DNA of 64,000 bases from Geosiphon pyriformis (lineage: Eukaryota > Glomeromycota > Glomeromycetes > Archaeosporales > Geosiphonaceae). Positions 1,478 through 44,755 of this stretch are shown piece by piece (the first letter of the stretch is position 1; every line of letters starts with the position of its first letter). A program made the position numbers and the translations under genes. The DNA is taken from contig JAAOMT010000586.1 in assembly GCA_016748015.1 (NCBI GenBank), positions 914,534 through 978,533 of the forward strand, written 5' to 3'. Below the pieces are notes generated by a model. It searched no databases, had not been told where the DNA came from, and saw nothing but the letters and a program-made list of their open reading frames with translations.

Positions 1478-2589
1478 CTATCCATAGATTATTTGTGATG
1501 TAATATTCACATATTCGCAAAGCTGTGAAAAATCTGAAATGGGGTTTGGTAGTTGATCTTCAACTTTAGTGTTTAAATATTTAATAGTGGTTCCTTTTGG
1601 TATCTTAATGACATCTTCTGTTGTGTTGTAGATAGAAATTTTAATGTGGTTTTTGTTTTTGGCTGGTATGTATAGATTGATAAGTCTAATTTCTCTTGAT
1701 TTGCAAATAGTTGGTTCTATTTCAAAAATCTGTGCCTGATTTTTTACTTTTCTTTTCAATACTAACATATGCCTGTTATATAGTGAAATAAAAACCAATT
1801 GATTGGTGGAGATAATTTTTTTCTTGTCAACAATTTTTTTTTCTGTTATATTGACTGGCACATCTATTCTACTTGTGGATCCAAATTTACTTATTTTTCT
1901 AACTGTAATTCCTAATTTTTCTCTGTTTTTTACTAATACTAATTGAGCTATTTTAACCAGAAACGGAAATATTGTCTGTACTATTTTTCATTTGGCTCTA
2001 TCACATAGGTCTTTTCTGAGTCATTTTGTAGCATAATAATAATATTTCCTACATATTCTGTATCAATTATTCTTCCTTTAATGTTGATTCCTTTTTTTGC
2101 TAGACTATTCTTTGATGCTAGTTGAACTATTGTTGTTGTTAGAATTTTCAGTGCTATTTTAAGATCAATGCATATGCACAAATTTGGTTTTAATTTGATG
2201 ACATCTTTCCCTGAATATCTCAGATTAAACTCAGCATCAGTATTATATACACATTCTGACATGATATCTTTATCATTATCACTAAACCATTTTAGTTCCT
2301 GCTTCTTAGTAAGATTAAGGAGCATGATATATTGTTTGAAGTTTGAATCATTGTTATTTTGGTTGCTATATTGAGTGGCACTAAAACTATTATTATTATT
2401 GTCATCATTGTCAGAATTTGAATTGGGATTGAAATTTAATTCCAATTCTAATGTGCAGCTACTGATTGGTTTTTCCTCTTCTGAGATTATGTAGATTATG
2501 CATAATAGTGAATTGTAAATAAAATCACAATTGTCACAATATTCAAAATCACTGGAAATTAAACAATGTTGGCATAATTTAGTATTCAA
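1478..2589 (-). pseudogene. Copy A dUTPase domain and pol linker
   Basis: The 202-residue frame at 1981-2589 begins with a CX2C-X8-CX2C cluster (CQHC...CDNC). After an Asn-rich stretch it enters a dUTPase fold: a degraded motif 1 (AEFNLRY where AGYDLRY is usual), a QLASKNSLA block for motif 2 and GRIIDTEYVGNI for motif 3. A one-base shift follows near 1981. The next frame carries a degraded motif 5 (KFGSTSR for GFGSTGR) and then a 127-residue linker at 1478-1861 with an NLYIPAK block that is also present in copies B and C. dUTPases hydrolyse dUTP to dUMP and limit uracil in cDNA. The motif changes suggest an inactive enzyme here. Confidence 0.75.
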
Positions 2590-2823
2590 CTGTTTTAGCC
2601 ATTGTTTTTGCTCTTTTCTTGTTGGGGCCAGTTGTTAGTAGTGTTTGAAAAATTCTTTAGGATTGTCCTTAATGTTATTAAAGACATCAAAGATTTAGAC
2701 ATATTTAGGTTCTGAAAGTAATAAGGGGTTGTTTTTGATTTCTAGTAGTTCATGTCTTCTACTTTCACATTTACCATTTTCCAAATTTCATGTTCATCAT
2801 GGAAATATTCTTTCAGTCATTTA

Positions 2824-12039: not shown

Positions 12040-13005
12040 TGTTACCAAATAAAATTAGAGATATTGCTTAGCATAAAATTACCCTTATAATTCTTATCAT
12101 TAATTAGCATTTCAAATTATCACTTATTACATTAGCAAAATATCCGAAATTATCATTTAATTAATAACCCAATTTGTATATAACACAAATGTAACCTAAT
12201 TGTGATGATCAATTATGCAATATCCCGAAATATGTAACATTCAAAAAGTTCACTGAAATTTGTAGAAATTTGCTGAAATAATTGATAGTTCACCGAAATA
12301 TCTAATTGTTTGCAGAAATAACTTGTAATTTGCCAAAATGTAGCTTTAGTTTAGCAAAATTGTAGAAAAAAACAAAGTTCAAGTTCATAGAATAGTGTTA
12401 TGACAAGTTGTATAAAAGAAGAGCTTCTCTTTTTGAGAAAATGTATCTTACTTTAGATTCATCACTTAGAACTATTCCTACATATATAAAAAGAAATAAA
12501 TATCAAATAATTTGAAAAACCAAATTCTTTAATTATTGCACTTGGAAAATCCTCAAAACCCAACTAACGTTTTGAAATTAATTAGTTACCAATTTCAGTA
12601 AACTGTTAGTGACTCCAGACCTGGATAGAAAACATTTCCCTTGACAGAATTCTATTTCTTTTACATTTTTTTTTTTTTTTTTCTTTTCTCATTACAATCA
12701 TTAGGGTAGCCTACAGATGAGATTCCTGTAGAAGAGTTGACTTTCACAGCAAAGTAACTACACATTTTAGTGAGCTTCCAGACAAGCAATTCCTGAGAAA
12801 GAGTTGATGTTTACTACAATGTAACTATATAAAGTAACTGGTAAGGAATTGGTCATTCCACTATAAGCCCAGCAGTTCAAATTATAGGAGATAATTTGAA
12901 GATAAATTCAGTTACTGAAGGTTCAACCACATCCAGACAACGTGAATTCACAACAAACAGGCATCAACAATGTTTAAGAAAAGAGACCAAAAACCTCCGG
13001 TAACA
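12040..13005 (+). repeat. Copy C 5' LTR (966 bp)
   Basis: It starts TGTTACC and ends GGTAACA, perfect inverted ends, with the PBS two bases later. It matches 20913-21856 along its length. One difference is a 24-bp insertion near 12057-12080 that duplicates an AAAATTA-ended segment. A TATA box TATAAAAG at 12411-12418 marks the likely U3/R boundary. An AATAAA at about 12495 lies in the presumed R region. Repeated pentamer-like motifs lie upstream of the TATA box. Confidence 0.9.
12411..12418 (+). promoter_or_regulatory. TATA box in copy C 5' LTR
   Basis: TATAAAAG is conserved in both LTRs (second copy at about 21260-21267), with a GA-rich stretch immediately after. It is the best candidate for the element's promoter. 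Confidence 0.6.
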
Positions 13006-13007
13006 TT

Positions 13008-13019
13008 TGGTGCTTTCTC
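13008..13019 (+). promoter_or_regulatory. Copy C primer binding site
   Basis: TGGTGCTTTCTC begins two bases after the LTR end GGTAACA. It matches the copy A site in eleven of twelve bases. The primer would be a tRNA ending GAGAAAGCACCA (including the CCA). Confidence 0.7.
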
Positions 13020-13050
13020 ATAAAAATAACACAGCAACAACAAATTCAAA

Positions 13051-14950
13051 GTGGCAACCACACCAGACACAGCAACTCTAGAGTATTACCAGTCAATTTA
13101 CACACACTGCAAGCAAAGATTCAACATTCCAGACGAAATTGAAGTTGTCAAGAAATCAGTATACCAATACATTGAAAACTGCATCAACAATTATCTTTTT
13201 GGAAACTACAACATTTCAGAAGTTAGAAGCAATCTCTACAATAATTTAGTGCACTATTCACACTTGGAAACAGAAGACCTAAACAGTGAAACACTTGCTA
13301 CCTACTTCCAAGAACTTAATTTTAACATTATTGAATATTGTGAAGAAAAATACCCAGTACAGTCTAAATACTCTTTTGACTTTGAATCAGAGACAGAAAC
13401 AAGCAACAAAGGCAAACAAAAATTGAAGCAATACTCAAAAACCACCCCAAATACTTTAATACTACCAAAAACAACTGTCAAATACTTACAAACACCTGAA
13501 CAAGGAACCAGTTCAAAACTTCTACTTACTATTACACCTTTTCCAGCTTTACTTGCACAAACACAAATACCTAATTCATCTTTAAATTGATTTGCAAGAC
13601 TAGAAGATTTTACATTACCTAGAAGTCCCACCAAACAACAAGAACCCTTTCAAACTAGTTTCAATCTCCTTGACTTTCTAGCTAAAAATCAAAGTGAACA
13701 CTCTGAGACAGTAGCGAATGAAGAAAACGACTCTGAAATATCTGAAAAAAAATCAATAGACAGTAAAAACAAAGAAGACAAAATGACAGCATACATCACA
13801 AAAATCCCTGAATTTAATGGAGAAGACATTAAGACCAGTCTCCAAGAATGGCTCGACCAAGTTACTAAAGCTGGAGATGCAAATGGATGGAATGCTGCCA
13901 GAATGTTAAGAACAATTCTCTACTTTCTCAAAAGAACAACAGGCAAATGGTTCGAAAACTTGACCATCTCTTTTAATAACTGGACAGCTTTCAAAACTGT
14001 CTTCTTAGAACAATTCACTGATAATAACACCTCCATTACTCTTCGAAATTGTTTTCGCAATATCAAACAAAAACCTTCCGAATCTGTCATGACTTATATT
14101 GAGAAATTCAATAAACTTTTCAGACGAATTTGCCAACTTGAAACTAATGATTATTATTCTGATGCTCAAATCTTGGATCAATTTATCACTGGTTTAAAGG
14201 ATAAACTGATTAAAAAGGTTTGCCCACATGCTCCAGAAGATTTAAACTCTGCCATTCAGCATGCAAAGAGATATGAAATGGCCATAGAAGAAGCCAATCA
14301 TACAAAACTTGTGAACTTAGCCATTGGAAAGACTAACTCAGCAGCTAAAGAGAAAATTGACCAACTTACAAAGAAAGTCGAAAACTATTTTACCAACTAA
14401 CAACAACAGCAACCCCAAAAATATCAACTATCTCAAAGACAGAATCAAAACAACTTCGTATCATTCTCTAATAACCAGCCTCAGAATTGCCATTACTGTG
14501 GAATTCCTGGCCACTGAAAAAAAGATTGCAGAAAGCTACAATGAGACCAACAAAACAGGAGTAATCAATGTTACCCTTTGCCACAACAATCTTATTACCA
14601 ACTATCACTACCACTAGCTTACTATCCACCAAGACCACAATATCAAACCGATTACTATCAACCTGCTCCACAGCCAATGCAACAACAGTATTGACAACCC
14701 ATTCAACATTACTAAGTACCTGCTCAAAGATTGGTTCAACAAAACCAATTTGCACCACAAAACTGATTCACAACAAACAACAACAGAACCAACCCAAATA
14801 ACCAATTAATTCTCCGAAATCTAGCTCAGCCAAGACCCACCCATTATCATACTCAATCTAGCTATCTTACAATATCTGAAGAACAGGATTTTCACCATAC
14901 TGCACTTTCGGAAGGTAGAGCTGCAGCATGACAACAAAACCCTTTCTATA
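13051..14950 (+). pseudogene. Copy C Gag (capsid and zinc knuckle, interrupted)
   Basis: The frame runs through TGA at 13588 and TAA at 14398. The first part (13051-13780) is acidic/Ser-Thr-rich without a known domain. The codon at 13051 is GTG in an ATG-like context, so the start is uncertain. The capsid region at 13783-14390 has the retrotransposon Gag pattern (W at LQEWLDQV, QILDQFITGLKD). The zinc knuckle CHYCGIPGH-stop-KKDC at 14488-14529 keeps all four ligands but has TGA where Arg/Trp is expected. A Gln/Pro-rich tail follows with stops at 14542, 14692, 14713, 14764 and 14929. Confidence 0.8.
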
Positions 14951-15039
14951 CTCCTACCACAATTCCACTAGCCAGAATTGCTAAAAATGCCAACCTTTCA
15001 GATATATTCCTTTTTGAGTTCAAAGCAAATAAGTCACCA

Positions 15040-15480
15040 TTCCTGTTTAGCAATGCAGCCACCAATAAACAAAAAACAATCACTGCTATATACACAGAAG
15101 CAGAAGTTGAAGGAAAGGCAATTTGCTTGATCCTAAACAGTGGATCCACCAGAAGCATCATTACCTATCAGTTAATGCAACAGTTAAAGAAAAATGTTGA
15201 CCAACCAGCTCAAACAGTAATCATTACTGCCGATGGCATGAAAAAGACTCCAGTAGGAGAAATTGACAATTTTTTGTTCACTCTTGATGGAATTACCATT
15301 TCAGTCAAAGTTCTTGTAATAGACATTCCTTAGTATCAAGCCCTTGTCAGAAATGACTGACTTCAAAAAGCCAATGCAAAATTAGACTGGGAAACCAAAG
15401 AACTACAAATCTCTTACCAAGGACAACATGCCCGAGTACTTGCCACTTGTGGTACATTCAACAAATGCTCTGAAAAAGCC
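15040..15480 (+). pseudogene. Copy C aspartic protease
   Basis: In the same frame as Gag, the active-site block reads LILNSGSTRSIITYQL, with AAC (Asn) at 15136-15138 where the catalytic Asp should be. IITADGMKKTPVGEIDNF follows, then a stop TAG at 15331 (Gln/CAG expected) and a stop TGA in the block RND-stop-LQKANA, where Trp is usual. The order and length fit a retropepsin between Gag and the rest of pol. Confidence 0.75.
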
Positions 15481-15639
15481 CCAGCTTTTGAATTCAAACC
15501 AGAAGAAGAAAAACCAATAATCGAAACATTTATGGCTCTTGGATCAATGTCTAATTGGGCTGAGGAAACTGAACAAGAACATTTTACTCCACACTCTAAA
15601 CCTAAAACTCCTGGATAGAATATCCCTTACTCAAAGCCT

Positions 15640-16300
15640 AAACCAAGGAAATGATGCCCCTACATTCCTCTTAAATGTAAGAACTGCCACAAGAAACTAT
15701 CGTCAATAGGAGCTTGTATTTCACCTGAGGAAGAATATGAAAGTCATACCTGCTACTACTGCAAGGTCTGCCATCAAGAACAATGGAGCCACTTGATCAA
15801 AAAAAGCAGAAAATAGGATAGAACACCCTGTCTTACTTGTGGAAAGCAGCTTCTTGATGAATGTGACTGGATTGATGTCGCATTTAGAGGAGGAGTCTGC
15901 GATCAAACTTGCCAATATGCTCTTTCTATTGCAGAAAAGATAAAACATGGAACACCTTTCAATGCCGCATACAATAGCACCTTCAACAAACTCCATTATT
16001 ATCCCCATGACGCCAAAATGATCTACAAACTTGCCATGGTTTTAATTAACGGAAGAACCAAAGAAGATGATCTTCAAATAAAAGAAGCTAAATATATCAA
16101 ATATACCTTGGAATTAGCTGGATTTGATTATGAAAATGAAGTAGAAGTGTACCATCAAATCACAAGTCACACTTACCTAATCAAAGAAGCTCAAGCTCAA
16201 TGGCTAGAGCAAATGAACATTAAATTATGTGAGGAATGCATAATGCCTTGTGATGAACAATAGTGTTCTGAATGCTATGCTCTTAGCATTCCATTACCCA
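15640..16300 (+). pseudogene. Copy C cysteine-rich zinc-binding-like segment
   Basis: It continues the gag-pol frame. Clusters in order are CKNCHKKLSSIGAC, EEYES, CYYCKVCHQEQW (15676-15792), then PCLTCGKQLLDEC and CDQTC (15829-15915), a helical stretch of about 90 residues, and LCEECIMPC...CSEC (16226-16275) just before dUTPase. Stops fall at codons where Trp/Arg/Gln are plausible. Copies A and B have counterparts at the same position. I recognise no family. The cysteine spacing suggests two or three zinc sites, and a nucleic-acid or protein contact role is only a guess. Confidence 0.6.
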
Positions 16301-16429
16301 GTGAAAGTGACGAATATGAAATCAAATTTGGTGAACCTAAAGCCACAGAAAAAATTGAAATGACACTTGTCTATCTTATCAAAAGTCAGCCTGCTTTACA
16401 GCTCAAATACTTTAACAACAACAGACAAG

Positions 16430-16830
16430 AAATAAAGCCTGAAAAAGCACATGAAATTGATGCTGGATACGATCTATGATATCCAAGAAAAGACACTTTA
16501 GTTCTTTAACTAAATTTTCTTACCAAGATCAATCTCAAAATTGCCCTCGAAATCCCACCAGAAGCAATGGTCTAAATTGCTTCACGATCATCATTGGCAA
16601 GCAAAAGAATTAATGTTAGAAGAGGAATCATAGATGCTGGATATACAGGAGATATTACAATCATGTTACAAAATGAAACTGATAAATCTTTCCGGATTGA
16701 ACATGCCAAAAAAATTGCTCAAGTTATTTATTTACCCTTAATCAACATTTCGGGTTTACAATTAGTCAATCAAAGAGAACAATTGGGAAAAAGTGAAAGA
16801 GGAACCAATGGTTTTGGTTCAACTGGATGA
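16430..16830 (+). pseudogene. Copy C dUTPase
   Basis: dUTPase motifs appear in order: AGYDL (motif 1, about 16462), ASRSSLAS (motif 2), RRGIIDAGYTGDI (motif 3), a motif 4 region ending EHAKKIAQV, and RGTNGFGSTG (motif 5, about 16800-16830). This is the best-preserved of the three copies. Three stops lie between motifs 1 and 2 (one TGA, consistent with CGA of DLRYP, and two TAA, one consistent with CAA). The family is the trimeric dUTP diphosphatase, and the motif 5 Gly-rich P-loop-like end is intact. The domain is flanked in frame by the cysteine-rich segment and the RT linker, so it was part of the polyprotein. Confidence 0.85.
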
Positions 16831-17520
16831 TTCACAGTTCCAGTAAACATAGCTCTTAATGAACAAAATGAATTTCACCAGATTCTATGACTTCTACAAC
16901 CAATTACTATTTTACCTTTTGGGGAATATCCGGAAATCTACATCTGCCCAAAGCCAACAATCACACAACAAATTTTTGAATCCAATGAACAAATCTGCTT
17001 GGAACATAATATCTCGATTCCAAACATTTATATTCCAAAAGGAACAAAGAAAGTCCAAGTTACTTTTTACAATCTCAACAATTATCTCATAGTTTTATTA
17101 AATAACTTAGAAATTGGAGTCATTCACAGTAACATCTTTCAACAAGAACTACCCCAAACAGTTCTCAATTTTTCGAAAATCATTGGACATTCACTACCAA
17201 AAATCAACCCAAACTCCAGCTCTGAAAACTACTATGTTGTCATAGAAAAACTATCTCGAATCAACATGGGACAACTTGAACCACAACAACAGAACCAGCT
17301 CAAAGAGTTAATTGCAGAATTTGCTGATATCTTTGCCAAAAACAACAATGACTTAGGAAGAACTGATTTGGTTCAACACCAAATCTATACAGAAGATGCC
17401 AAACCAAGGCAACAACAAGTCTACCGAGTTGCTCCAGAAAGCCACCAATTTATCAGAGAAGAAGTACAATGAATGCTTAACAATAGCTTATTCAACCATC
17501 AATGAGTCCATAAGCCTCAC
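16831..17520 (+). pseudogene. Copy C pol linker and RT N-terminus with frameshift
   Basis: The sequence after the dUTPase stop includes ISIPNIYIPKGTKKVQ, equivalent to NLYIPAK of copies A and B, and then the pre-RT block EFADIFAKNNNDLGRTD and HQIYTEDAKPRQQQVYR, which is typical of Ty3/gypsy pol before the RT. The frame ends at TGA 17470. One base is missing near 17490, after which the next frame carries PSMSP and the RT proper. Confidence 0.7.
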
Positions 17521-17522
17521 CT

Positions 17523-18670
17523 GTGGTCCTAGTTAAAAAGAAAAATGGAAAGATACGATTTTGTGTTGATTATCGACAACTCAACAGCATTACTATTGGA
17601 GATGCCTACCCTTTTTCCCGAATTAATGACATGTTGGATGCCCTTGGAAAGTCCAAATACTTTTCGACATTAGATTTAGAGAGCGAATACTGGCAAGTTG
17701 CCATGGATTCCAAAGATTGCCCCAAAACAGCATTTACTACTCAAGAAGGAAATTATGAGTTCAATGTAATGCCTTTTGGATTATGCAATGCACTAGCAAC
17801 ATTCCAAAGACTCATGGATGTTATTTACAAAGGCCTCTTTTGGAAATCAGTAGTTGTCTATTTCAATAATATTGATGTTTATTCACCATTTTTTGAATTA
17901 CACTTAACACACTTGCAAAAAGTTTTTCAATGATTATAGAAAGCAGGACTGAAACTAAACATTAAAAAATGCTACTTTGAAAAAACGAGTTTGGTCTTTC
18001 TTGGCCACATTGTGAGTAAAGATGGAATTAAACCAGACTCCAGAAAAATCAGTGCTGTCAAAAACTTTAAAACTCCTCAAAACACTACAGAACTAAAAGA
18101 ATTCATAGGGTTAGCCTCCTATTATCGGAAGTTTATCAAAGAATTCTCAGAAATTGCAAAACCTCTCAACCAGCTTACTACCAAAAATGTTGAATACAAA
18201 TGGACTGCTGAACACCAAAATGCATTTGAAATCCTCAAAGAAAAACTAACCACAGCTCCAATTCTCGCCTACCCAGATTTCAGCAACCAATTCTGGTTAT
18301 CAACAAATGCCTTTTATACTGTCTTTGGTGCCATCCTATCATAGTTAGATGACAATAGAAATGAGTGAGTAATTGCTTATGCTAGCAAAACATTGAAACC
18401 AGCTGAAAAGAACTACTTTACAACAGAATTAGAAACTGCAGCAGTAATCTGGGCTCTACATCACTTTAATCTTTATCTCAGATCCAAAGAATTTGATATT
18501 ATTACTAATAATATTGGACTCAAATAACTTTAAAACAAAAACACTCAGCTGAATGCCAAACAAACCCGATGGACAAGATTTTTAGCCAACTATTGATACA
18601 TTGTACATCACAAACCAAGAAAACTCCATACTAATATTGATTGTCTCTTAAGAATGAGACAAAATTAGAA
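17523..18670 (+). pseudogene. Copy C reverse transcriptase and RNase H
   Basis: RT motifs are VLVKKKNGKIRFCVDYRQLN, YFSTLDLESEYWQ and FNVMPFGLCNALATFQRLMD, and the catalytic loop reads YFNN (17859-17870) instead of Y-x-D-D, so both metal-binding aspartates are lost. The FLGHIVSKDGIKPD block is at 18000. RNase H follows from about 18280 (IAYASKTLKPAEKNYFTTELE) with stops at 18340-18370 and 18525-18535. The enzyme is certainly dead in this copy. Gly-to-Glu and Pro-to-Leu changes in conserved blocks are all single transitions. Confidence 0.85.
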
Positions 18671-20051
18671 AACAGAACCAACACCCATTTGAATTAACAG
18701 CAACAAAACAACAAACAATGAACTCTGAAAACTACAACAATCTTAAACAATATTTGGAGACATTAACAATCCCAACAGATTGGTCCCCAGATGAAAAACG
18801 TTAATTACAACAACAAGCCAAACAATACTTCTTACACAACAACATTATTTATTATTGAAACTTCAGAAACCCAGACAGTTCACTCAAATTAATACAAGAA
18901 CATGAAAAAAAACTATTTTATACAACATGCACTCAGACCCTTTATCAGCACATCTAGAAAAAGACAGCACCACCCAGAGAACACTAGAATATTACTTTTG
19001 GCCTCGAATGAGAAAAAACATTCATGAATATGTTAAATCTTGTGATAGTTGTCAAAAAAGAGAAGAAACTCGCCCTACAAAACCTTTAAACCCAATCAAA
19101 GTTGGACAGTCTTTTAACCAAATTGGTATTAATTTAGTCAGACCACTACCTATCACAAACCAAGGAAACCATTATATTGCAGTAGCCGTAGACTATTTCA
19201 CTAAATGGCCTGAAGCCAGAGCCATTCAATGAGCAGATGCAAAATCAGTAGCAAACTTCATTTATGAAGACATTATTTGTAGACACAGATGCCCAATTGA
19301 ACTTTTATCTGATCAAAGAACACATTTTGTGAACAATCTAATTCAAAAAATCTGTGAATGATTCAATATTAAAAGACCATTATCTTCACCCTATCATCCA
19401 CAAACAAATAAACTTGTAGAATGTTTCAACAGAATATTGTGTGAATTTTTAGCCAAAGTCTCAACAGATTTTGAGCAGGAATGAGATATCTTTATTCCAT
19501 CAGTGTTACTAGCATATAGAACACTAAAACAAGATACCACAAAACACATACCATTTGATTTAACCTATGGAAGAACAGCAACATTACCAATTAGTTTCAT
19601 AGTGGAAACATACTCAGTACAGCCAATTAATGAAGACAACTTTCAGAAAACACTACAATGAAGAGCCTACACTCTGCTTAGCACATTGGAAGGAAAACAA
19701 CGAATAGCAGCAACCCACATTGAACACTCTCAAGCTCAACAAAAAGAACGGCATAACAACAAATTGCCACCAATTACCAATGAATTTAAAATTGGAAACA
19801 AAGTTCTCTTACACAGAACTAAAGCCAAAAAACAATGGAATAGAAAATTTGAAAATAAATGGGATGGATCATTCTTTATTCATAAAATCCTAGGCAATGG
19901 ATCATACAAGTTAAGACTTGATGACAAAATCCTAGCAAAAGTTGCACATGGAAATTGTTTGAAACACTATAATTCCAGAAACAATCCTGAACCATTAATT
20001 TCACAAATTGGTACACATTCCTTTTTAATCAATCCCAAAGATATTCCCTAA
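18671..20051 (+). pseudogene. Copy C integrase
   Basis: The HHCC zinc region (HSDPLSAH...CDSCQ) is at 18927-19060. The DDE core follows: first Asp in AVDYFTKWPEA, second in LLSDQ and Glu in KLVECFN, all three present. SSPYHPQTN is recognisable. In-frame TGA codons occur at five places (19230-19665), mostly where Arg or Trp is expected. The C-terminal region (19686-20051) carries a GPF/Y-like module (KWDGSFFIHKILGNGSYKL) and ends at TAA. Confidence 0.85.
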
Positions 20052-20224
20052 AATTTAGAATCAATAGTTGTTATTAAACAACCTCCCAACTTGAACACTT
20101 AATTTAAATTTATTATTATAGTTATTTCCTTATAATTTAGAAACAATCTCACAAAAACAAAACAAAAATAACATAAAAACCCATACACCAAAAATAATTT
20201 TCCTTTATTTTCAAATCTCTTATA

Positions 20225-20956
20225 ATGACTATTCCTCAAAACATTCAACAATTATCCCAAAAACTAATGTTAGCTTTAAAAATAATACTGGAATTATCCA
20301 TTACTGTTACTGAAAACCACATTAATTATACCCAAACAGAAGTAGTTACAAATTTAGCCCCAAATACATGAAAATATTACTTATATAAGAAGAACACAAG
20401 AAGTTATTTTGGAATTCACCTGCCAAAACTTTTAAAGCTTGCTTTAAAAGAAAACTTAATGCTCATTCCTATTAGTATTCTACCAAATGCTACTATTCAA
20501 CAAAAACTTCAACTGTGTCTTAATAAAGAAAACTATGACTATACTCCAATATATAGATATTTCTACATTGGAAAAACACTTCACGAATGAAAACAGGAGC
20601 TTACAGCAACAAACCTCACAAAAAAAGCTATTTGGAAACAACTCTACAATAAATTCAAAACAACAGCTAGACCTACAAACAGTCATTATAAACTAAGAGC
20701 TGCTCTTAGACTTTATAACCTATCCCACACCTGTAAAAACGTCCTACAAAACCCAATTTTACAACCTTTGAAGATTCAATACATTGAAAAGCTCACAGAA
20801 CTGAAATTTCAACAATTTTCAGATCAAATTTCTTCAATAATTTTGGATTATTATCTGGAAATTACAGACAGTACTTGGATTTTGACAGAGCTTAGTCTTG
20901 AGAAGGAGGTTATATTACCAGATGAAATTACCCTTATAATTCTTATCATTAATTAG
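20225..20956 (+). pseudogene. Extra ORF in env position of copy C (unknown function)
   Basis: After integrase there is a 244-codon reading from ATG 20225 to TAG 20954-20956, interrupted only by TGA at 20369 and 20588. The frame crosses the polypurine tract and ends inside the 3' LTR. Length and openness are far beyond chance in DNA this AT-rich. The product would be basic and mostly helical, with a YRYFYIGKTLHE block, a KKAIWKQLYNKFKTTARPT block and an acidic C-terminus. I see no signal peptide, membrane span or furin-like site, so it does not look like an envelope protein. No family is recognised. Copies A and B lack this region in the window, so it cannot be compared. Confidence 0.6.
20900..20909 (+). 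promoter_or_regulatory. Polypurine tract of copy C
   Basis: GAGAAGGAGG lies three bases before the 3' LTR. It is the expected plus-strand primer site for an LTR retroelement. Confidence 0.65.
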
Positions 20957-21856
20957 CATTTCAAATTATCACTTATTACATTAGCAAAATATCCGAAATT
21001 ATCATTTAATTAATAACCCAATTTGTACATAACACAAATGTAACCTAATTGCAATGATCAATCATGCAATACCCTAAAATATGTAACATTTAAAAAGTTT
21101 GCCGAAATTTGTAGAAATTTGCCAAAATAATTGATAGTTTACCGAAATATCTAATTGTTTGCAGAAATAACTTGTAGTTCGCCGAAATATAGCTTTAGTT
21201 CAGCAAAATTGTAGAAAAAAACAAAGTTCAAGTTCATAGAATAGTGTTATGACAAGTTGTATAAAAGAAGAGCTTTTCTTTTTGAAAAAATGTATCTTAC
21301 TTTAGATTCATTACTTAGAACTATTCCTACACATATAAAAAGAAATAAATATCAAATAATTTGAAAAACCAAATTCTTTAATTATTGTACTTAGAAAATC
21401 CTCAAAACCCAACTAACATTTTGAAATTGATTAACTACTAATTTCAGTAAACTGTTAGTAACTCCAGGCCTGAATAGAAAACGTTTCCCTTGACAGAATT
21501 CTATTTCTTTTACATTTCTTTTATTTTTCTTTTTTTTTCTTATTACAATTATTAGAGTAGCTTACAAACGAGATTTCTGTAGAAGAGTTGACTTTCACAG
21601 CAAAGTAACTACACATTTTAGTGAGCTTCCAGATGAGCAATTTTTGGGAAAGAGTTGACATTTACTACAACATAACTATATAAAGTAACTGGCAAGGAAT
21701 TGGCCATTCCACTATAAGTCCAGCAGTTCAAATTATAGAAGATAATTTGAAGATAAATTCAGTTATTGGAGGTTCAACCACATACAGACAACATGAATTC
21801 ACAACAAACAGACATCAATGACATTTAAGAAAAGAGACCAAAAACCTCCAGTAACA
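20913..21856 (+). repeat. Copy C 3' LTR (944 bp)
   Basis: It starts TATTACC (TGTTACC in the 5' LTR) and ends AGTAACA (GGTAACA in the 5' LTR). It aligns to 12040-13005 throughout, apart from the 24-bp insertion in the 5' copy. In the first 330 aligned bases I count about 19 differences and all are transitions. It contains the TATA box at about 21260 and the same repeated GAAAT motifs. Confidence 0.9.
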
Positions 21857-27711: not shown

Positions 27712-27954
27712 GGTTTTATTAATGGTAGAGGAGCGGAGATTGTTGGCGGATACTTTGTTTTAGGTAGAACCTAGACGTAAGAAAAAGAGGTTAAGAAACA
27801 AGTCTTTGCAATTTGAAAACAACTTCTAAAATAGGTCATCAAAGCCCACTGTTCAGGGTAACTTATCAGTAGGATCTGTCTGTCAGGGTATATCTGATAT
27901 GATGATTTTATTGCTCAAAAAAGTTTCTTCTGCAATTTTTGTAAATTTGCCTCG
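27712..27954. promoter_or_regulatory. Bidirectional promoter region, CTK3-like / SAL1-like
   Basis: Only 243 bp separate the two start codons on opposite strands, so both promoters must lie here or overlap. No clear TATA box is seen. Pyrimidine-rich stretches precede both starts. Confidence 0.45.
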
Positions 27955-30161
27955 ATGTCTAAAACGAATCCAAAGAAAATAGAGACTGACCTCCCAAATA
28001 ATATATCTATCTCCGAAAAACCATCCTTTCGACTGGTATCGGAGCCTCTCGTGTCTCGAGAGGTACTAAGAACACCAAGTTCTCCCAGACAATCTCCAAA
28101 CTCTACGAAATTAGTTCTTTCAGAACACCCTTCTTACCCACCCTCTTTTCACGAAAATGAAGCGGCTCGGGCAGTTCGCATACATTCAACGTTTGCCGGG
28201 CTTGACAAAAACGGTACTGGCTTTCTTGACCGTGATAAAATACAGAAAGGCTTGAGCGAGCATAAATTTCCAGCACGCAACAAGTATGCATCAGAACTCT
28301 TACAAAGATGTGATACTTCGAAAGATGGTGTGGTGGACTTTGACGAATTCAAGGCTTTTGTCGAGGAAAAGGAAAAAGAGTTGTGGAAGCTTTTCCTCGA
28401 GATTGATAAAAGTCGAGATATGCACTTACAACCAGAAGAACTGGAGGGGGCTTTCCGGAAAGCGGGTGAGGTTTACACCTAACCATATAATTAAAGTCAA
28501 TTTCATGTATGAACTTTCTTTCATCTCACAATAAAATGCCTTTAATTATATCAGGCATTCAATGCACCAAAGAAGAAATCAAAAAGTTTATTGATATTAT
28601 GGATCAAGATGGCAATGGAATCATTGATTTCGGAGAATGGCGAGATTTCCTTTTGGTATTTGGTAGTTGAATTGAGAATTCTCCAATTGAGCTTCTCGGA
28701 TTTTCTAAATTTAATCAGAATTTTTGTCCAGCTGCTTCCAAGTGAAACGAATCTTCAGGAAATATATAATTTCTATCAATCGGGAGCTCAAGTTAATATT
28801 GATGGTGAAGTAGTGATTTCGCCAACAGATCCAAAGTATTTTCTTGCGGGAGCCATAGCTGGTAGGCTATCTGATTATGTTTGCTTTACCTTGGTGAGCG
28901 TAGAAAACCAAATTCTAAGTCTTATTGGTGCAACAGTTCTTTAACTAACCCTTCCTTTAGGGGCTGTCAGTCGGACCGCTACTGCGCCTTTCGATCGTCT
29001 GAAAATATATCTCCAAACACAGACCGTTTCACCACGGAAATTAAACGTCTTTGTGAAAAGAGGGAAAAAGCTTAATGAATTGAATGAAATTCCATCTATA
29101 CCCCCTGGCTGGAAGAAAGCTACCACCGCCATTAAGGAATTATATCAAAAAGGTGGAATATTAAACTTCTTTCGTGGGAATGGACTTAATGTTGCTAAAA
29201 TCGTTCCAGAGAGTAGGTTTGTGTGCGGCCAGTAAATAAACGTTGTTGGTGTGGCTTTAGTTACTATGAATTTACACTAATATTTAATCCAAATTTCCAA
29301 CTTATTAGCATAAAGTTTTATGCTTATGAACAATCAAAAGCTATAATTGCTTATTCGATGGGTACCGAAGATATAGAATCGATAGGAATTTCAGGAAGAT
29401 TTCTTGCTGGGGGGATAGCCGGCTTGATGTCTCAATTTATAATATATCCATTGGAAACTCTCAAAACGAGGTTAATGAGCTCAGCGGGTATGGGATCTCC
29501 ATCATTGAAAGGGAGTCTTTTACTACGCACGGCTAAAGATATGTGGAATATACAAGGGACACGGACATTCTACAAAGGCTTGACTCCTGCTATGATTGGA
29601 GTGTTTCCATATGCCGCGATTGACATGAGCATATATGAGAGCCTAAAAATGGCATACAGGAAGTGGGAAGAAAAACGGGATACTGTTAAAAAGTCAAACC
29701 AGTTTAGCGCGCTTCTCTCATTAGGTTGTGGAACGACGTCTGGTTCTATAGGGGCGACAATAGTATATCCTTTATCGCTTGTGCGCACACGGTATGATTT
29801 CAAACCTTTTTCACCATTAAGAATTTGAGATAATTTTGGCCCTTTATTCCGTTGTATATTCTCATTACCCGATAAAATATATGACATTGAGAACTTTTAG
29901 ATTACAGGCCCAAGGTACCCCAGGACATCCACAAACATATGCTAACGCGTTGGATGTTATTAAAACAACATATTCTAACGAAGGTATTCGTGGATTTTAC
30001 AAGGGATTGGCACCAACATTAATAAAGGTGAGTATGTTCTTTGATGTCGATAATGTTCTCAAAACTCAGTTATATGCTATCTTTTGATATAGGTTGTTCC
30101 AGCCGCAGCGATCACCTACTTGGTTTATGATCAAACGAAGCATAAAATGAAATTAAGCTAA
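27955..30161 (+). CDS. SAL1: Ca2+-dependent mitochondrial ATP-Mg/Pi carrier, SAL1-like
   Basis: Exons: 27955-28465, 28555-28655, 28732-28861, 28961-29216, 29309-29791, 29901-30027, 30093-30161, giving 1,677 nt and 558 residues. After a Ser/Pro-rich start, four EF-hand loops are visible: [27 protein letters not shown] (poor consensus) and DQDGNGIID. Three mitochondrial carrier repeats follow with the signatures PFDRLK, PLETLK and PLSLVRTR. This is the short Ca-binding carrier (SCaMC/Sal1) architecture: the EF-hand half faces the intermembrane space and gates ATP-Mg/phosphate exchange across the inner membrane. A general calcium-binding carrier of another substrate is a less likely alternative. 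The gene ends 236 bp from the PRMT3-like stop codon. Confidence 0.92.
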
Positions 30162-39927: not shown

Positions 39928-42555
39928 TTATATACTCAGATCTTTTAAAGCTTTTTTGAGTTTATCATGCATTTCACTACCCTCAAAAGAGTTCTTCGTC
40001 CGACCGATCAAGGTTCTAAGCAAGGATTTTGCTTGATATCGCCAATCTTTACATACCAACTCTTCAATGGTGTTTCCCATGCTCTTGATTTCTGTAGCAT
40101 TTGTTGCTGCCGCCGATTGTTGATCTACTGGTTTGATTACTTTCAACTCGCCCAAATTCTGGTAAGTTTCAACAACTTCTAGTGCTGCTGTGGCTGCTTG
40201 ATCAAAAACCTCAGCAGACGTTTCTAAACGTGGATCGTGCAAGAAACATCGATAAGCTTTTAAAAGAGCCTCCAAAGTGAGATCATATCTTTTCTGGGAG
40301 AACCAAAAGTTCCCGCAGATGCGCCAGATTTTAGGGTTGTTAGTAACACGCGAAGTAATCCCCTCAAAGAGCAGCCGTTCAACTTTGGGCACGAGAAATT
40401 TAACATTGTTTTTATCAGCATCAAGAATTCCTTGGGTTACCGAATTCACAATAATTTCTAGAACCTCAATATCAACACACTTTTCTTTCTCTTTTTGCCA
40501 TAATAAGTCTACTACACGTTGCATAGCACGTATGGCTTCTGAAAATTCACCTATATCAATGGCGGTATACATATAGTTGGTCCATACCTTCCAATTATCG
40601 TAATTTTGTTTTAATGCTTGTTGGAAAGCATTAAAAGCGTCCATTTTACGATCTTGTTTTAAAAAGATCGATGCAAGATTGTTCCATGCCTCGGAATTTT
40701 CTGAATCAATAGTAATAACTCGCAGGAAGGCATTTATAGCTATATCCCAATCATCAATACGCATTGCAGCACAACCTTGAATAAACCAGGAGTTTTCAAA
40801 CAACGGATTTATTTGGAGGGCCTTTTTATAACAATCAATCGATTTTTGATATTGTTGCTGTTGAAACCAATGACTGCCGAGGGACCGCATAGCTCGCGCA
40901 AAACGATAATTAGAGATTTCCCATGCATATTCCCAGTGCTTTGGATCTTTTTCAATATCACCTAAAATACAATAAAGCTTGGGCGATTTAGGCGTGATCT
41001 TGAGACGTTCATGTATTATACCCTTAGCCTTTTCTTCTTTTCCTAACATGACATAACAATGAATCACTTCTTCCCACATTTCTAAGCGTTCAAATATCTC
41101 CAGGGCTGAACGGACCACTCCAAGAGACATAAAGCGTTCACCTAGCTCTTTTTCCATGTCCCATTTAGATGGTAAAAGAATTTGATAAAAGTATTCAATT
41201 CTTTCATGTGCACTAGAAATCTCAAGTGGAAACTGATCTACTAATGCTTGCAATTGAAGAGCAGATCGTTCTACAGTACGTGACTTTTCTTTTTCTAATC
41301 GTGATCTTAGCAATAGAGCCATCGTATGTACCATCCAGTTGTTTGGATTTTCGAGAACACGAGAGACATAAGGAATCATTTGTTCAGTGGTGATACCATG
41401 AGCTGGATTTGTATTTTTTATATTTAAACAAAAAGCTAGAAGAATACATTGATCAATTATTTTTAGATTACTCTGGTTTTCTGGATTGGTTTCGATTTCA
41501 TCGGCTTCATATTCGTTCTCCATGGTTTCATTGATCTGGCTATACTTTCGAAATTTTATTTTTTCAAGAAGCGTGTCATCATCAAGAGGTAAATTATCAG
41601 GAAGCTTATTTGGTCTGCTTTCCTCAGGTTGGATATTGTTATTGGAATGGCTGCTAGCAACAAGCAAAAGTTGAGAGACATCAAAGGTTTGAAACCTTGT
41701 GCGTCTGCCTAAAGCACCTGTTATCTTCCATTTTAAGCCACTTGCTCGTTGCGCTTTGACAAAATGATCAAGAGCTAAGGCGTCTTGATTATAATAATGA
41801 TAAATAAATCCACATTCAATATGATAACGAACGTGGACTAATGCAATCTCCTCAGAAAAATCGGGGAGTGAAGTCTCAAGCGATCCAATGCATTCGATGA
41901 TAGGGCGTCGTAAAGACGCCGCGTTATTATCTAAAATTCGTTGTTGCAAAAATAATGCTCTCATCGCCCACCAGTTTTTAGTCTTTAAATCCTTCAACAA
42001 AGAAATATTATCTACAAGAATAGTACGAGCAATCAACAAAAAAAGTGCATTTGGTGTCAAGTGATAAGCCTGTTCTCCATCTGCCTCTAAAGAATCTATA
42101 GCCCTCTTGTTTAGTTCAATACTTCCGATTCTCATATATTTGGGCAAAATATCCTGTGGTTCTAATTCAAAGACTGGTCCAGTCCATCCGGTTTGAACAA
42201 AAGCATTGATAAAGCTAACAGCGATGCAAAGTACCTGAAGCTGTTTGACCAAAGGGTGCTCATGATTAAACTCTTCTATCTCCTGAAAATAAAGTTGAAG
42301 TTGTCGAGAGATATAGGTAGAAATCTCAATGGTTTGAGATGACTCTTCTGCTGCTTCCCTAGCCAACACAGTTGTTTCCGAACTCAAATCACTTCCAAGT
42401 AGTAAGCGGACAGTATTTGAAGTTAGGACATTTTCGTATTGGCCATCAATCAATTTAGAAACAAGTGTGGCAACATTAAGGTGGGCTTCTTCTTTTACTG
42501 GTTTACCCGAAATTAGGGACCATTCGAGCTTTTCAATTTTTGCTTCGAGCGACAT
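39928..42555 (-). CDS. EMW1: TPR protein of the TTC27/EMW1 family
   Basis: One uninterrupted frame of 875 codons, a typical length for TTC27 (about 840) and yeast Emw1 (about 900). The N-terminal half is alpha-helical with a block on the RRPIIECIGSLETSLPDF pattern. The C-terminal half holds tandem tetratricopeptide repeats (about residues 555-700), for example YQKSIDCYKKALQINPLFE, WDIAINAFLRVITIDSENS and AFNAFQQALKQN. The yeast protein is essential and linked to cell-wall integrity and Rho1 signalling. The human homologue has been tied to pre-rRNA processing. The exact role here is inferred. It is intronless, whereas the other host genes except the Sfi1-like one have 2-16 exons. Confidence 0.85.
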   Translation of the reverse strand: MSLEAKIEKLEWSLISGKPVKEEAHLNVATLVSKLIDGQYENVLTSNTVRLLLGSDLSSETTVLAREAAEESSQTIEISTYISRQLQLYFQEIEEFNHEHPLVKQLQVLCIAVSFINAFVQTGWTGPVFELEPQDILPKYMRIGSIELNKRAIDSLEADGEQAYHLTPNALFLLIARTILVDNISLLKDLKTKNWWAMRALFLQQRILDNNAASLRRPIIECIGSLETSLPDFSEEIALVHVRYHIECGFIYHYYNQDALALDHFVKAQRASGLKWKITGALGRRTRFQTFDVSQLLLVASSHSNNNIQPEESRPNKLPDNLPLDDDTLLEKIKFRKYSQINETMENEYEADEIETNPENQSNLKIIDQCILLAFCLNIKNTNPAHGITTEQMIPYVSRVLENPNNWMVHTMALLLRSRLEKEKSRTVERSALQLQALVDQFPLEISSAHERIEYFYQILLPSKWDMEKELGERFMSLGVVRSALEIFERLEMWEEVIHCYVMLGKEEKAKGIIHERLKITPKSPKLYCILGDIEKDPKHWEYAWEISNYRFARAMRSLGSHWFQQQQYQKSIDCYKKALQINPLFENSWFIQGCAAMRIDDWDIAINAFLRVITIDSENSEAWNNLASIFLKQDRKMDAFNAFQQALKQNYDNWKVWTNYMYTAIDIGEFSEAIRAMQRVVDLLWQKEKEKCVDIEVLEIIVNSVTQGILDADKNNVKFLVPKVERLLFEGITSRVTNNPKIWRICGNFWFSQKRYDLTLEALLKAYRCFLHDPRLETSAEVFDQAATAALEVVETYQNLGELKVIKPVDQQSAAATNATEIKSMGNTIEELVCKDWRYQAKSLLRTLIGRTKNSFEGSEMHDKLKKALKDLSI

Positions 42556-43890: not shown

Positions 43891-44755
43891 ATGGATTTTC
43901 AGAACAGAGTAGGTTAGTATTTATCGGCTTCTTTTTCGATTCAATGAAAGTTAATTTTCGCAGTTTATAGCCTTTTTCCTAATACATTAAATATTTTTAT
44001 GTAAAGGTTCTAAGGTAGGTAGTGGAGGGGTTGCTGGGTACTCTGAAACAAATGTTGATCGACGTGAACGTCTTCGTAAACTTGCGTTGGAGACTATTGA
44101 TCTGAACAAAGACCCATATTTTATGAAAAATCATTTGGGGTCTTATGAATGCAAATTATGTTTGACGTTGCACACAAATGAGGGTAGTTATCTTGCCCAC
44201 ACTCAAGGCAAAAAACACCAAACTAATTTGGCTCGAAGGGCGGCACGTGAAGCCAAAGAGAACAATAATATACAACCAGCGTTGCAAGCTGCTGCTAAAA
44301 TTCAAGTTAGAAAAAATATGGTAAAGATTGGTCGGCCTGGTTATAAAGTTACCAAAGTTCGTGATCCTATCACGCGACAGCTTGGTCTTTTGTTTCAAAT
44401 TCAATATCCAGAGATCGGAACAGATGTCATCCCTAGACACCGATTCATGTCTGCGTATGAACAGCGTATCGAGCCGCCCAACAAGGCTCATCAATATTTG
44501 TTGTTTGCTGCAGAGCCTTATGAAACTATTTCATTCAAAGTTCAAAGTAAAGAGGTGGATAAAGGTGAAGGAAAGTTTTTTACTCATTGGGACCCGGATT
44601 CAAAGCAATTTTCATTGCAATTCTTTTTCAAAAATGATCGCCCAAGCATTTATTCTGAAGGAGTCCCACCAGGTTTGGAACGTGCTCCCATCGCAAACCC
44701 GTTAAATCCTTACAATGCGCCAGTCATGCGAGGACCTACTTACGTACACGGTTAA
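43891..44755 (+). CDS. SF3A2: Splicing factor 3A subunit 2 (Prp11/SAP62)
   Basis: Exons: 43891-43912 and 44007-44755, giving 771 nt and 256 residues. The 22-nt first exon encodes MDFQNRV, and the junction restores the conserved RVGSKVGSGGVAG start. The matrin-type zinc finger is YECKLCLTLHTNEGSYLAHTQGKKH, followed by NLARRAAREAKE and the conserved core (VGRPGYKVTKV-like, RFMSAYEQR, FTHWDPDSKQFSLQFFFK). SF3A binds U2 snRNP and is needed for prespliceosome assembly in the nucleus. The length is that of fungal Prp11, without the proline-rich tail of animals. Confidence 0.95.

What the first reader, a model, noticed from the sequence alone, without database searches (positions are those of the whole stretch)
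20225..20956. Unrecognised third ORF in the env position of a fungal Ty3/gypsy element
A 244-codon reading with only two TGA interruptions sits between integrase and the 3' LTR, crosses the polypurine tract and ends in the LTR. Both TGAs are single transitions from Trp or Arg codons, like the other stops of this element. The product looks soluble, basic and helical, without membrane span or signal peptide, so it is not an obvious envelope. I do not recognise it. It could be an accessory protein of this element family.
Basis: partly seen in the sequence, partly recalled or inferred. Interest (0 to 1): 0.8.

Follow-up and report, generated by a model that had tools for sequence, protein, structure and literature searches.

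The report
Conserved accessory gene in fungal retrotransposons
The open frame between integrase and the last repeat of this Geosiphon retrotransposon looks like a real, selected gene for a small helical protein with no recognised relatives, shared by several related element families, and is more likely a regulatory or particle helper than an envelope.

Summary
The window lies in Geosiphon pyriformis; the frame at 20225-20956 sits between integrase and 3' LTR of a dUTPase-bearing Ty3/gypsy element. It has two in-frame stops where shuffles average 17 (0 of 5000 had two or fewer). Of the 150 best family matches scored, 44 have no stop. Against a sister family dN/dS is 0.22, like the integrase control (0.24); the five other frames give 0.32-1.43. 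Distant homologues (25-35% identity) lie after integrase in copies of three further families. So it is most simply an ancestral third gene. Its run through the polypurine tract into the LTR is peculiar to families A and B; in the C, D and F copies read it stops at the tract. The product has no membrane span, no conserved acidic, His, Cys or Ser residue, and no Pfam, PDB or clear fold match; all relatives listed are from Geosiphon. Most likely (about 0.35) it is an RNA-binding regulator of the element; a particle protein is the main rival. New protein family of a known kind: the additional ORF between pol and 3' LTR.

The parts
12040..13005 (+). 5' LTR (TGTTACC...GGTAACA)
   Evidence: 93% match to the 3' LTR over 935 bases; outermost bases set by eye
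13030..13590 (+). N-terminal extension of gag, no recognised domain
   Evidence: 186-codon open stretch, no Pfam family at E 0.01
13591..14400 (+). gag capsid region
   Evidence: Retrotrans_gag E 6.8e-13, Ty3_capsid E 2.5e-8
14932..15333 (+). aspartyl protease
   Evidence: Asp_protease_2 E 1.5e-7
16441..16830 (+). dUTPase between protease and reverse transcriptase (read with X at stops)
   Evidence: dUTPase E 6.9e-23
17514..17933 (+). reverse transcriptase
   Evidence: RVT_1 E 1.1e-20
17940..18344 (+). end of reverse transcriptase and start of RNase H
   Evidence: RT_RNaseH_2 E 1.2e-11
18864..19481 (+). integrase zinc-binding domain and part of core
   Evidence: Integrase_H2C2 E 1.3e-15; rve_3 E 0.0046, below its cut-off; two further pieces gave no family
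19662..20051 (+). integrase C-terminal part
   Evidence: open stretch; SH3_Tf2-1 E 9e-4, below its cut-off
20225..20956 (+). ORF3, the accessory gene; TGA at codons 49 and 122; the part conserved between families ends near 20880
20900..20912 (+). polypurine tract, read through by ORF3 in this family
   Evidence: sequence; same place just after the ORF3 stop in the C, D, F copies read, by eye
20913..21856 (+). 3' LTR, with a 24-base deletion near its start
   Evidence: start by alignment to the 5' LTR

Best explanation
ORF3 is a genuine third gene of a dUTPase-bearing Ty3/gypsy lineage in Geosiphon, most simply present before families A, B, C, D and F diverged and kept by selection while elements were active. 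Selection and shared position are shown; the single origin is the simplest reading. Inferred: it makes a small soluble protein, with an N-terminal helix and beta-hairpin (modest model confidence), a basic, probably flexible linker and a helical domain, that acts by binding rather than catalysis. Most likely it binds the element's RNA in the nucleus and promotes its expression or export as unspliced genomic RNA, as CERV does for Cer1 in worms, made from a spliced or otherwise subgenomic message. I put the gene itself at 0.95 and this mechanism at about 0.35.
For: Gene: open-frame excess; 44 of 150 scored family-A matches without a stop, the query copy included; dN/dS median 0.22 between A and B over 900 pairs, other five frames 0.32-1.43, integrase 0.235; group-diagnostic differences at codon positions 1, 2, 3 of 41/209, 25/218, 76/210; C-D dN/dS 0.23-0.31 over 4 pairs; homology A to C by BLASTP E 4e-13 and hhalign probability 98.8; same position in one D and one F locus; ORF3 and integrase group families A, B, C, F alike. 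Binding rather than catalysis: across 31 sequences of five families the invariant or 90%-conserved residues are I, Y, L, T, F, N and Q only; in a six-sequence alignment one Lys is invariant too. Nucleic-acid binding: the low-confidence linker after the hairpin has net positive charge in 31 of 31 sequences. Fast evolution relative to integrase (A-C 25% against 58%; C-F 35% against 65%) suits a regulatory partner. Precedent: CERV, encoded by a spliced Cer1 mRNA and required for export of genomic RNA (PMC10309623, abstract and one section read).
Against: No RNA, localisation or binding data exist here. The whole protein is only mildly basic (pI 7.0-9.9). CERV is a large protein with a cysteine loop; nothing here shows descent from it. 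No splice sites were tested. A particle protein would show the same constraint. The 31 linker rows are related sequences, not independent observations. D-F dN/dS is weaker (0.53-0.55; dS 1.2, saturating) and C-F is 0.30 at dS 1.9; the C-C pair gives 1.39 on 13 differences and the D-D pair 0.46, and pairs within A and B give 0.63 and 0.44, as decay of dead copies dilutes the signal. 5 of 8 stretches after dUTPase matches showed no ORF3.
Confidence: 0.4

Rival explanations
1. ORF3 is a second structural protein of the virus-like particle (a matrix-like or capsid-accessory protein), made in smaller amount than Gag.
For: Helical domain, no conserved catalytic-type residues, fast evolution with purifying selection, as expected of structural proteins.
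Against: No similarity to the gag N-terminal extension of the same element (hhalign probability 0.1) and no capsid-like match in PDB or viral fold searches, though these found nothing clear at all.
Confidence: 0.25
2. ORF3 counters host silencing or defence, or links the element to host chromatin or transport.
For: Fast evolution relative to integrase; thousands of unscored first-look candidate places for this ORF in the genome; differences between copies are nearly all transitions (ts/tv 31.5 within A, 14.9 within B) and stops recur at the same codons, which suggests a host process acting on copies.
Against: dN/dS is well below 1 in each quarter of the gene (0.14-0.27), with no sign of positive selection at this resolution.
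Confidence: 0.2
3. ORF3 is a degenerate or divergent envelope-like protein.
For: Env position, sense orientation; LTR elements elsewhere carry env-like ORFs there (PMC7264820 section 4; PMC5408684 passages).
Against: No hydrophobic span: best 19-residue mean 1.43 or less in 17 sequences; helical soluble-type model of a relative.
Confidence: 0.04
4. The frame is a chance open reading frame, or its conservation reflects DNA-level constraint near the polypurine tract.
For: The last stretch before the LTR is conserved as DNA in different frames between families (by eye).
Against: 0 of 5000 shuffles, codon-position pattern, dN/dS, protein-level homology over some 200 residues.
Confidence: 0.02

Closest known systems
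Additional sense ORF between pol and 3' LTR (aORF-3S) of plant LTR retrotransposons (PMC7264820)
   Same: Position, orientation, presence in many copies, unclear function
   Different: Section 4 presents those mostly as env-like, some with transmembrane domains; this product has none and no sequence relative was found
CERV of Cer1, C. elegans (PMC10309623)
   Same: An accessory protein of an LTR retrotransposon without similarity to known retroviral proteins
   Different: CERV is large, has three predicted domains and an essential cysteine loop, and its function was tested; ORF3 is about 206-240 residues with no conserved cysteine
Non-envelope ORF3 genes of bdelloid rotifer LTR elements (PMC5408684)
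   Same: ORF3 in addition to gag and pol, in lineages most of which carry a dUTPase domain
   Different: Those include GDSL esterases, DEDDy exonucleases, coiled-coil and transmembrane ORFs; no such family matched here
Fungal gypsy elements with dUTPase between protease and RT, e.g. PosPlaTy3-5 of Postia placenta (PMC2864245); the same figure's legend has an 'additional ORF with unknown function'
   Same: dUTPase placement; fungal host; the additional ORF as a category
   Different: Not comparable: no sequence was held, only passages were read, and which elements bear that ORF and where was not seen

Membership tests
Ty3/gypsy LTR retrotransposon | Two LTRs with TG...CA ends | tested here: met
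   93% LTR match; ends by eye; the 3' copy's first bases are mutated
Ty3/gypsy LTR retrotransposon | gag, protease, RT, RNase H, integrase in gypsy order | tested here: met
   the integrase core only weakly in the window copy (below cut-off)
dUTPase-bearing fungal gypsy elements | dUTPase domain in pol between protease and RT | tested here: met
   E 6.9e-23
Additional sense ORF between pol and 3' LTR | Sense ORF in that position | tested here: met
   (copies of families A, B, C, D, F)
Additional sense ORF between pol and 3' LTR | Present in all or most copies of a family | tested here: inconclusive
   hundreds of copies have it, but only the best-scoring candidates were examined, and 5 of 8 stretches after dUTPase matches showed none
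Additional sense ORF between pol and 3' LTR | Codon-level selection | tested here: met
Retroviral-type envelope | Transmembrane span | tested here: not met
   hydropathy maximum 1.43 or less in 17 sequences; usual threshold 1.6 recalled; no dedicated predictor used
Retroviral-type envelope | Signal peptide | not tested
   no dedicated predictor at hand
CERV | Cysteine-rich loop with invariant cysteines | tested here: not met
   no conserved cysteine in 31 sequences
CERV | Spliced mRNA | not testable with these tools
   no transcripts held
Known fold family | Structural match to a solved or viral predicted fold | tested here: inconclusive
phrog_23683 (phage family of unknown function) | Profile match over most of the domain | tested here: inconclusive
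   E 0.0047 and 0.026 over 54 residues in 2 proteins; likely chance

The most novel reading that the evidence does not exclude
ORF3 is the founding member of a new retroelement regulatory protein family, possibly with a new fold: a fungal counterpart of Rev or CERV that controls nuclear export or expression of gypsy RNA and arose within, or is now confined to, the Geosiphon lineage.
Probability: 0.3. Interest if true: 0.75.

Novelty: new variant of a known kind. Interest (0 to 1): 0.55.

Why it matters
Fungal Ty3/gypsy elements are usually described with gag and pol only (my recollection). A third gene kept through the divergence of several families, in a fungus whose assembly is tabulated at 64% repeats (PMC9453076, passage read), means that this lineage depends on a function not yet named. 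It gives a defined protein, with dozens of natural uninterrupted versions, for testing how fungal retroelements regulate their RNA, build particles or meet host defence. It also accounts, wholly or in part, for some 260 listed 'hypothetical protein' entries of the Geosiphon annotation (E 2.3e-8 or better).

Tried and rejected
Tried without result. Pfam, NCBIfam and PHROGs: no match over a cut-off (PHROGs has none). Weak hits were scattered: best Pfam E 0.017 in 2 of 16 members; cell-division protein FtsQ twice over the same region (NCBIfam E 0.005 in one of two proteins, 16 bits against a cut-off of 366; PDB E 1.6), which I take as chance. PDB sequences: best E 0.18. Phage records by tblastn: one phage genome under two accessions, E 7; its protein is short and not convincing. 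Viral contigs: 312 pattern stretches, none confirmed. First structure model, family A first, 16 rows: pLDDT 41, not used. Fold searches: nothing clear; absence of a match does not show a new fold.

Considered and rejected: ORF3 as a copy of the gag N-terminal extension; as envelope; chance frame; stop readthrough from pol as the general route of expression: in the C and F copies read ORF3 follows the pol stop in the same frame, but the D copy read is in another frame and the A and B copies printed have several stops between. A functional role for the residues across the polypurine tract: the same DNA lies after the stop in the C, D and F copies read. One inherited defect behind the stop at codon 122.

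Limits: copies compared are the best-scoring ones (one search scored 40 of 1542 candidates and 30 became loci; searches scored 150 of 2441, 2535, 3916 and 4079), so stop counts lean towards young copies. The 900 A-B pairs share one split and are not independent; dS there is 0.92, near saturation. Two A copies with a one-base shift were kept. One minus-strand frame gave 0.32, close to the coding value, as can happen where degenerate positions coincide. The first dN/dS script stopped on an error after the main rows and was rerun for the rest. Of 8 stretches after dUTPase matches, 2 held ORF3, 1 a piece of it running into N, and 5 none. The protein searches listed 120 of 204, 120 of 217 and 120 of 134 hits; all listed are named Geosiphon pyriformis, the unlisted ones were not seen, only proteins sharing short exact words are candidates, and in two searches only about 8000 candidates were scored. 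Literature: searches of open PMC papers; 63 and 99 (Geosiphon or Glomeromycotina with gypsy, LTR and further terms) returned 0 papers; nothing seen describes this ORF. That does not prove it unpublished; the Geosiphon genome paper (Curr Biol 2021) was seen only in a reference list.

Full report
What is there. The window belongs to a 124.7 Mb assembly whose proteins are on record as Geosiphon pyriformis, a glomeromycotan fungus. At 12040-21856 lies one copy of a Ty3/gypsy element. Its LTRs match at 93%, and it has capsid, aspartyl protease, dUTPase, RT, RNase H and integrase domains in that order, interrupted by stops. ORF3 at 20225-20956 follows integrase, with 2 in-frame TGAs. Shuffled versions of codons 1-234 average 17.3 stops, and 0 of 5000 have two or fewer.

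Copies. A DNA search of the own genome gave 1542 candidates, of which 40 were scored: 40 main matches at 90-100% identity over nearly the whole ORF, and 12 short pieces of its end. A protein search scored 150 of 2441; by my count 44 of the 150, the query copy included, have no stop. A second family (B, 235 residues, about 66% identical) scored 150 of 2535. In the 60 loci fetched (30 A, 30 B), 4 of 30 A and 19 of 30 B copies have no stop over 233 codons. Mean stops in frame are 2.7 (A, shifted copies included) and 0.5 (B), against 13.9-22.4 in the other five frames. Differences within families are nearly all transitions (ts/tv 31.5 in A, 14.9 in B), but 1.7 between families. The 53 stops of the A copies lie on 12 codons, and carriers of the commonest (14 of 30) are not closer to each other than to the rest. 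So the stops look like post-insertion decay at susceptible codons.

Selection. Between A and B, base differences diagnostic of the groups fall at codon positions 1, 2, 3 as 41/209, 25/218 and 76/210. Nei-Gojobori dN/dS (my script) has median 0.224 over 900 pairs. The other frames give 0.66, 1.43 (plus strand) and 0.75, 0.32, 1.26 (minus strand); by quarter the ORF gives 0.27, 0.27, 0.19 and 0.14. The integrase control is 0.235, its other plus frames 0.64 and 1.03; the 150 bases before ORF3 are 64% identical against 71-86% in nine windows before that. Between C and D, four pairs give 0.23-0.31; C-F gives 0.30 and D-F 0.53-0.55 at high dS; the single C-C and D-D pairs give 1.39 (13 differences) and 0.46. 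Within A and B the ratios are 0.63 and 0.44. The A-B pairs are not independent, and dS is near saturation; the frame contrast and the agreement with integrase are what count.

Depth. dUTPase matches in the genome led to 8 stretches of 3 kb. Two (L068, L069) hold integrase followed directly by ORF3, uninterrupted over 222 codons in L068 and with stops in L069; a third holds a piece before reading N; five show none, two of them largely N. The L068 product (family C) matches the window family at 26% identity over 215 columns (E 4e-13); profile comparison gives probability 98.8 and E 7e-17. A genome search with it gave 151 matches, including further families at 63-66% (D) and 37-40% (F) identity. 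F itself scored 150 of 4079 candidates at 84% or more. In one D and one F locus the ORF again follows integrase and ends at the polypurine tract before an LTR start (by eye). Integrase and ORF3 group A, B, C and F alike: A with B, C with F. ORF3 changes far faster: A-C 25% against 58% for integrase, C-F 35% against 65%. Hence ORF3 most simply predates the split of these families; no tree test of exchange between families was made.

The stretch across the polypurine tract. In families A and B the frame runs through the tract into the LTR; in the C (2), D (1) and F (1) copies read it stops at the tract. The DNA just before and at the tract is alike in all, but read in different frames (by eye). 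So the last 15-20 residues of the A and B products probably reflect DNA constraint and are not part of the conserved protein. The window copy's end differs again because of a 24-base deletion.

The protein. No relative in Pfam, NCBIfam or PDB passes a cut-off, and PHROGs gives only E 0.0047. Three searches of 5.8 billion proteins listed 120 of 204, 120 of 217 and 120 of 134 hits, all listed ones named Geosiphon 'hypothetical protein'. A model of the family-C relative on an alignment of 31 sequences from five families has mean pLDDT 71 and pTM 0.63: an N-terminal helix and hairpin (blocks 54-66), a low-confidence linker (41-62), and a helical domain 64-205 (blocks mostly 72-92, with a dip to 54 at 121-130). 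It is not a model of the window's own protein; an earlier one with family A first was poor (pLDDT 41). Fold searches found nothing clear. Hydropathy speaks against an ordinary membrane span in 17 sequences. Conserved residues are I, Y, L, T, F, N and Q, with one Lys in a smaller alignment, which speaks against an enzyme. The linker is net positive in 31 of 31 rows.

How it most likely works. Shown: a selected, element-borne gene in the env position for a protein without membrane span. Inferred: binding function; basic linker contacting nucleic acid; nuclear regulator of the element's RNA. The nearest tested precedent that I read for a non-env accessory protein is CERV of Cer1, required for export of genomic RNA (PMC10309623; abstract and one section read). 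The analogy is of role, not descent. A particle protein is the main rival; host counter-defence is next.

Relation to the known. [quoted passage not shown] PMC5408684, passages). A 2010 survey of fungal gypsy elements reports dUTPase between protease and RT and has an additional ORF of unknown function in a figure legend (PMC2864245, passages); I could not compare its sequences. I therefore rate this as a new variant of a known kind: a new protein family in a known slot.

Noticed in passing
window 15660-16290: Cysteine-rich stretch with repeated CxxC pairs between protease and dUTPase (motifs by eye). 15817-16260 has no Pfam family at E 0.01; its PDB hits are antibody light chains, best E 4e-4, doubtful. 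Possibly an extra zinc-binding domain of pol.
   Followed up: partly
window 13030-13590: gag carries an N-terminal extension of up to 186 residues without a known domain, without similarity to ORF3.
   Followed up: partly
window 1984-2634, minus strand: A second dUTPase-bearing stretch on the other strand, probably another element cut by the window edge (dUTPase E 1.4e-6).
   Followed up: no
window 12040-13005 and 20913-21856; families A and B: The two LTRs differ almost only by transitions (by eye), family A copies have ts/tv 31.5, and stops recur at the same codons: cytosine-deamination-type decay of repeats in this fungus is suggested.
   Followed up: partly
families A, B, C, D, F just before the polypurine tract: A short DNA stretch before the tract is alike in all families although read in different frames: a likely cis signal.
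   Followed up: partly
L074 and L068/L069: In the F and C copies read, ORF3 follows the pol stop codon in the same frame with no further stop before it; many listed copies show the same open-frame length (227, 250).
   Followed up: partly
L064: A copy with LTR-like sequence close after its dUTPase match and no ORF3 seen: perhaps an internally deleted element.
   Followed up: no
L063: A long open frame that looks like a non-LTR reverse transcriptase downstream of one dUTPase match (by eye).
   Followed up: no
window 27898-28479, 29217-29825, 39931-42555 (minus), 43991-44752: Ordinary host genes: EF-hand protein, mitochondrial carrier, TPR protein, splicing factor SF3a subunit 2.
   Followed up: no
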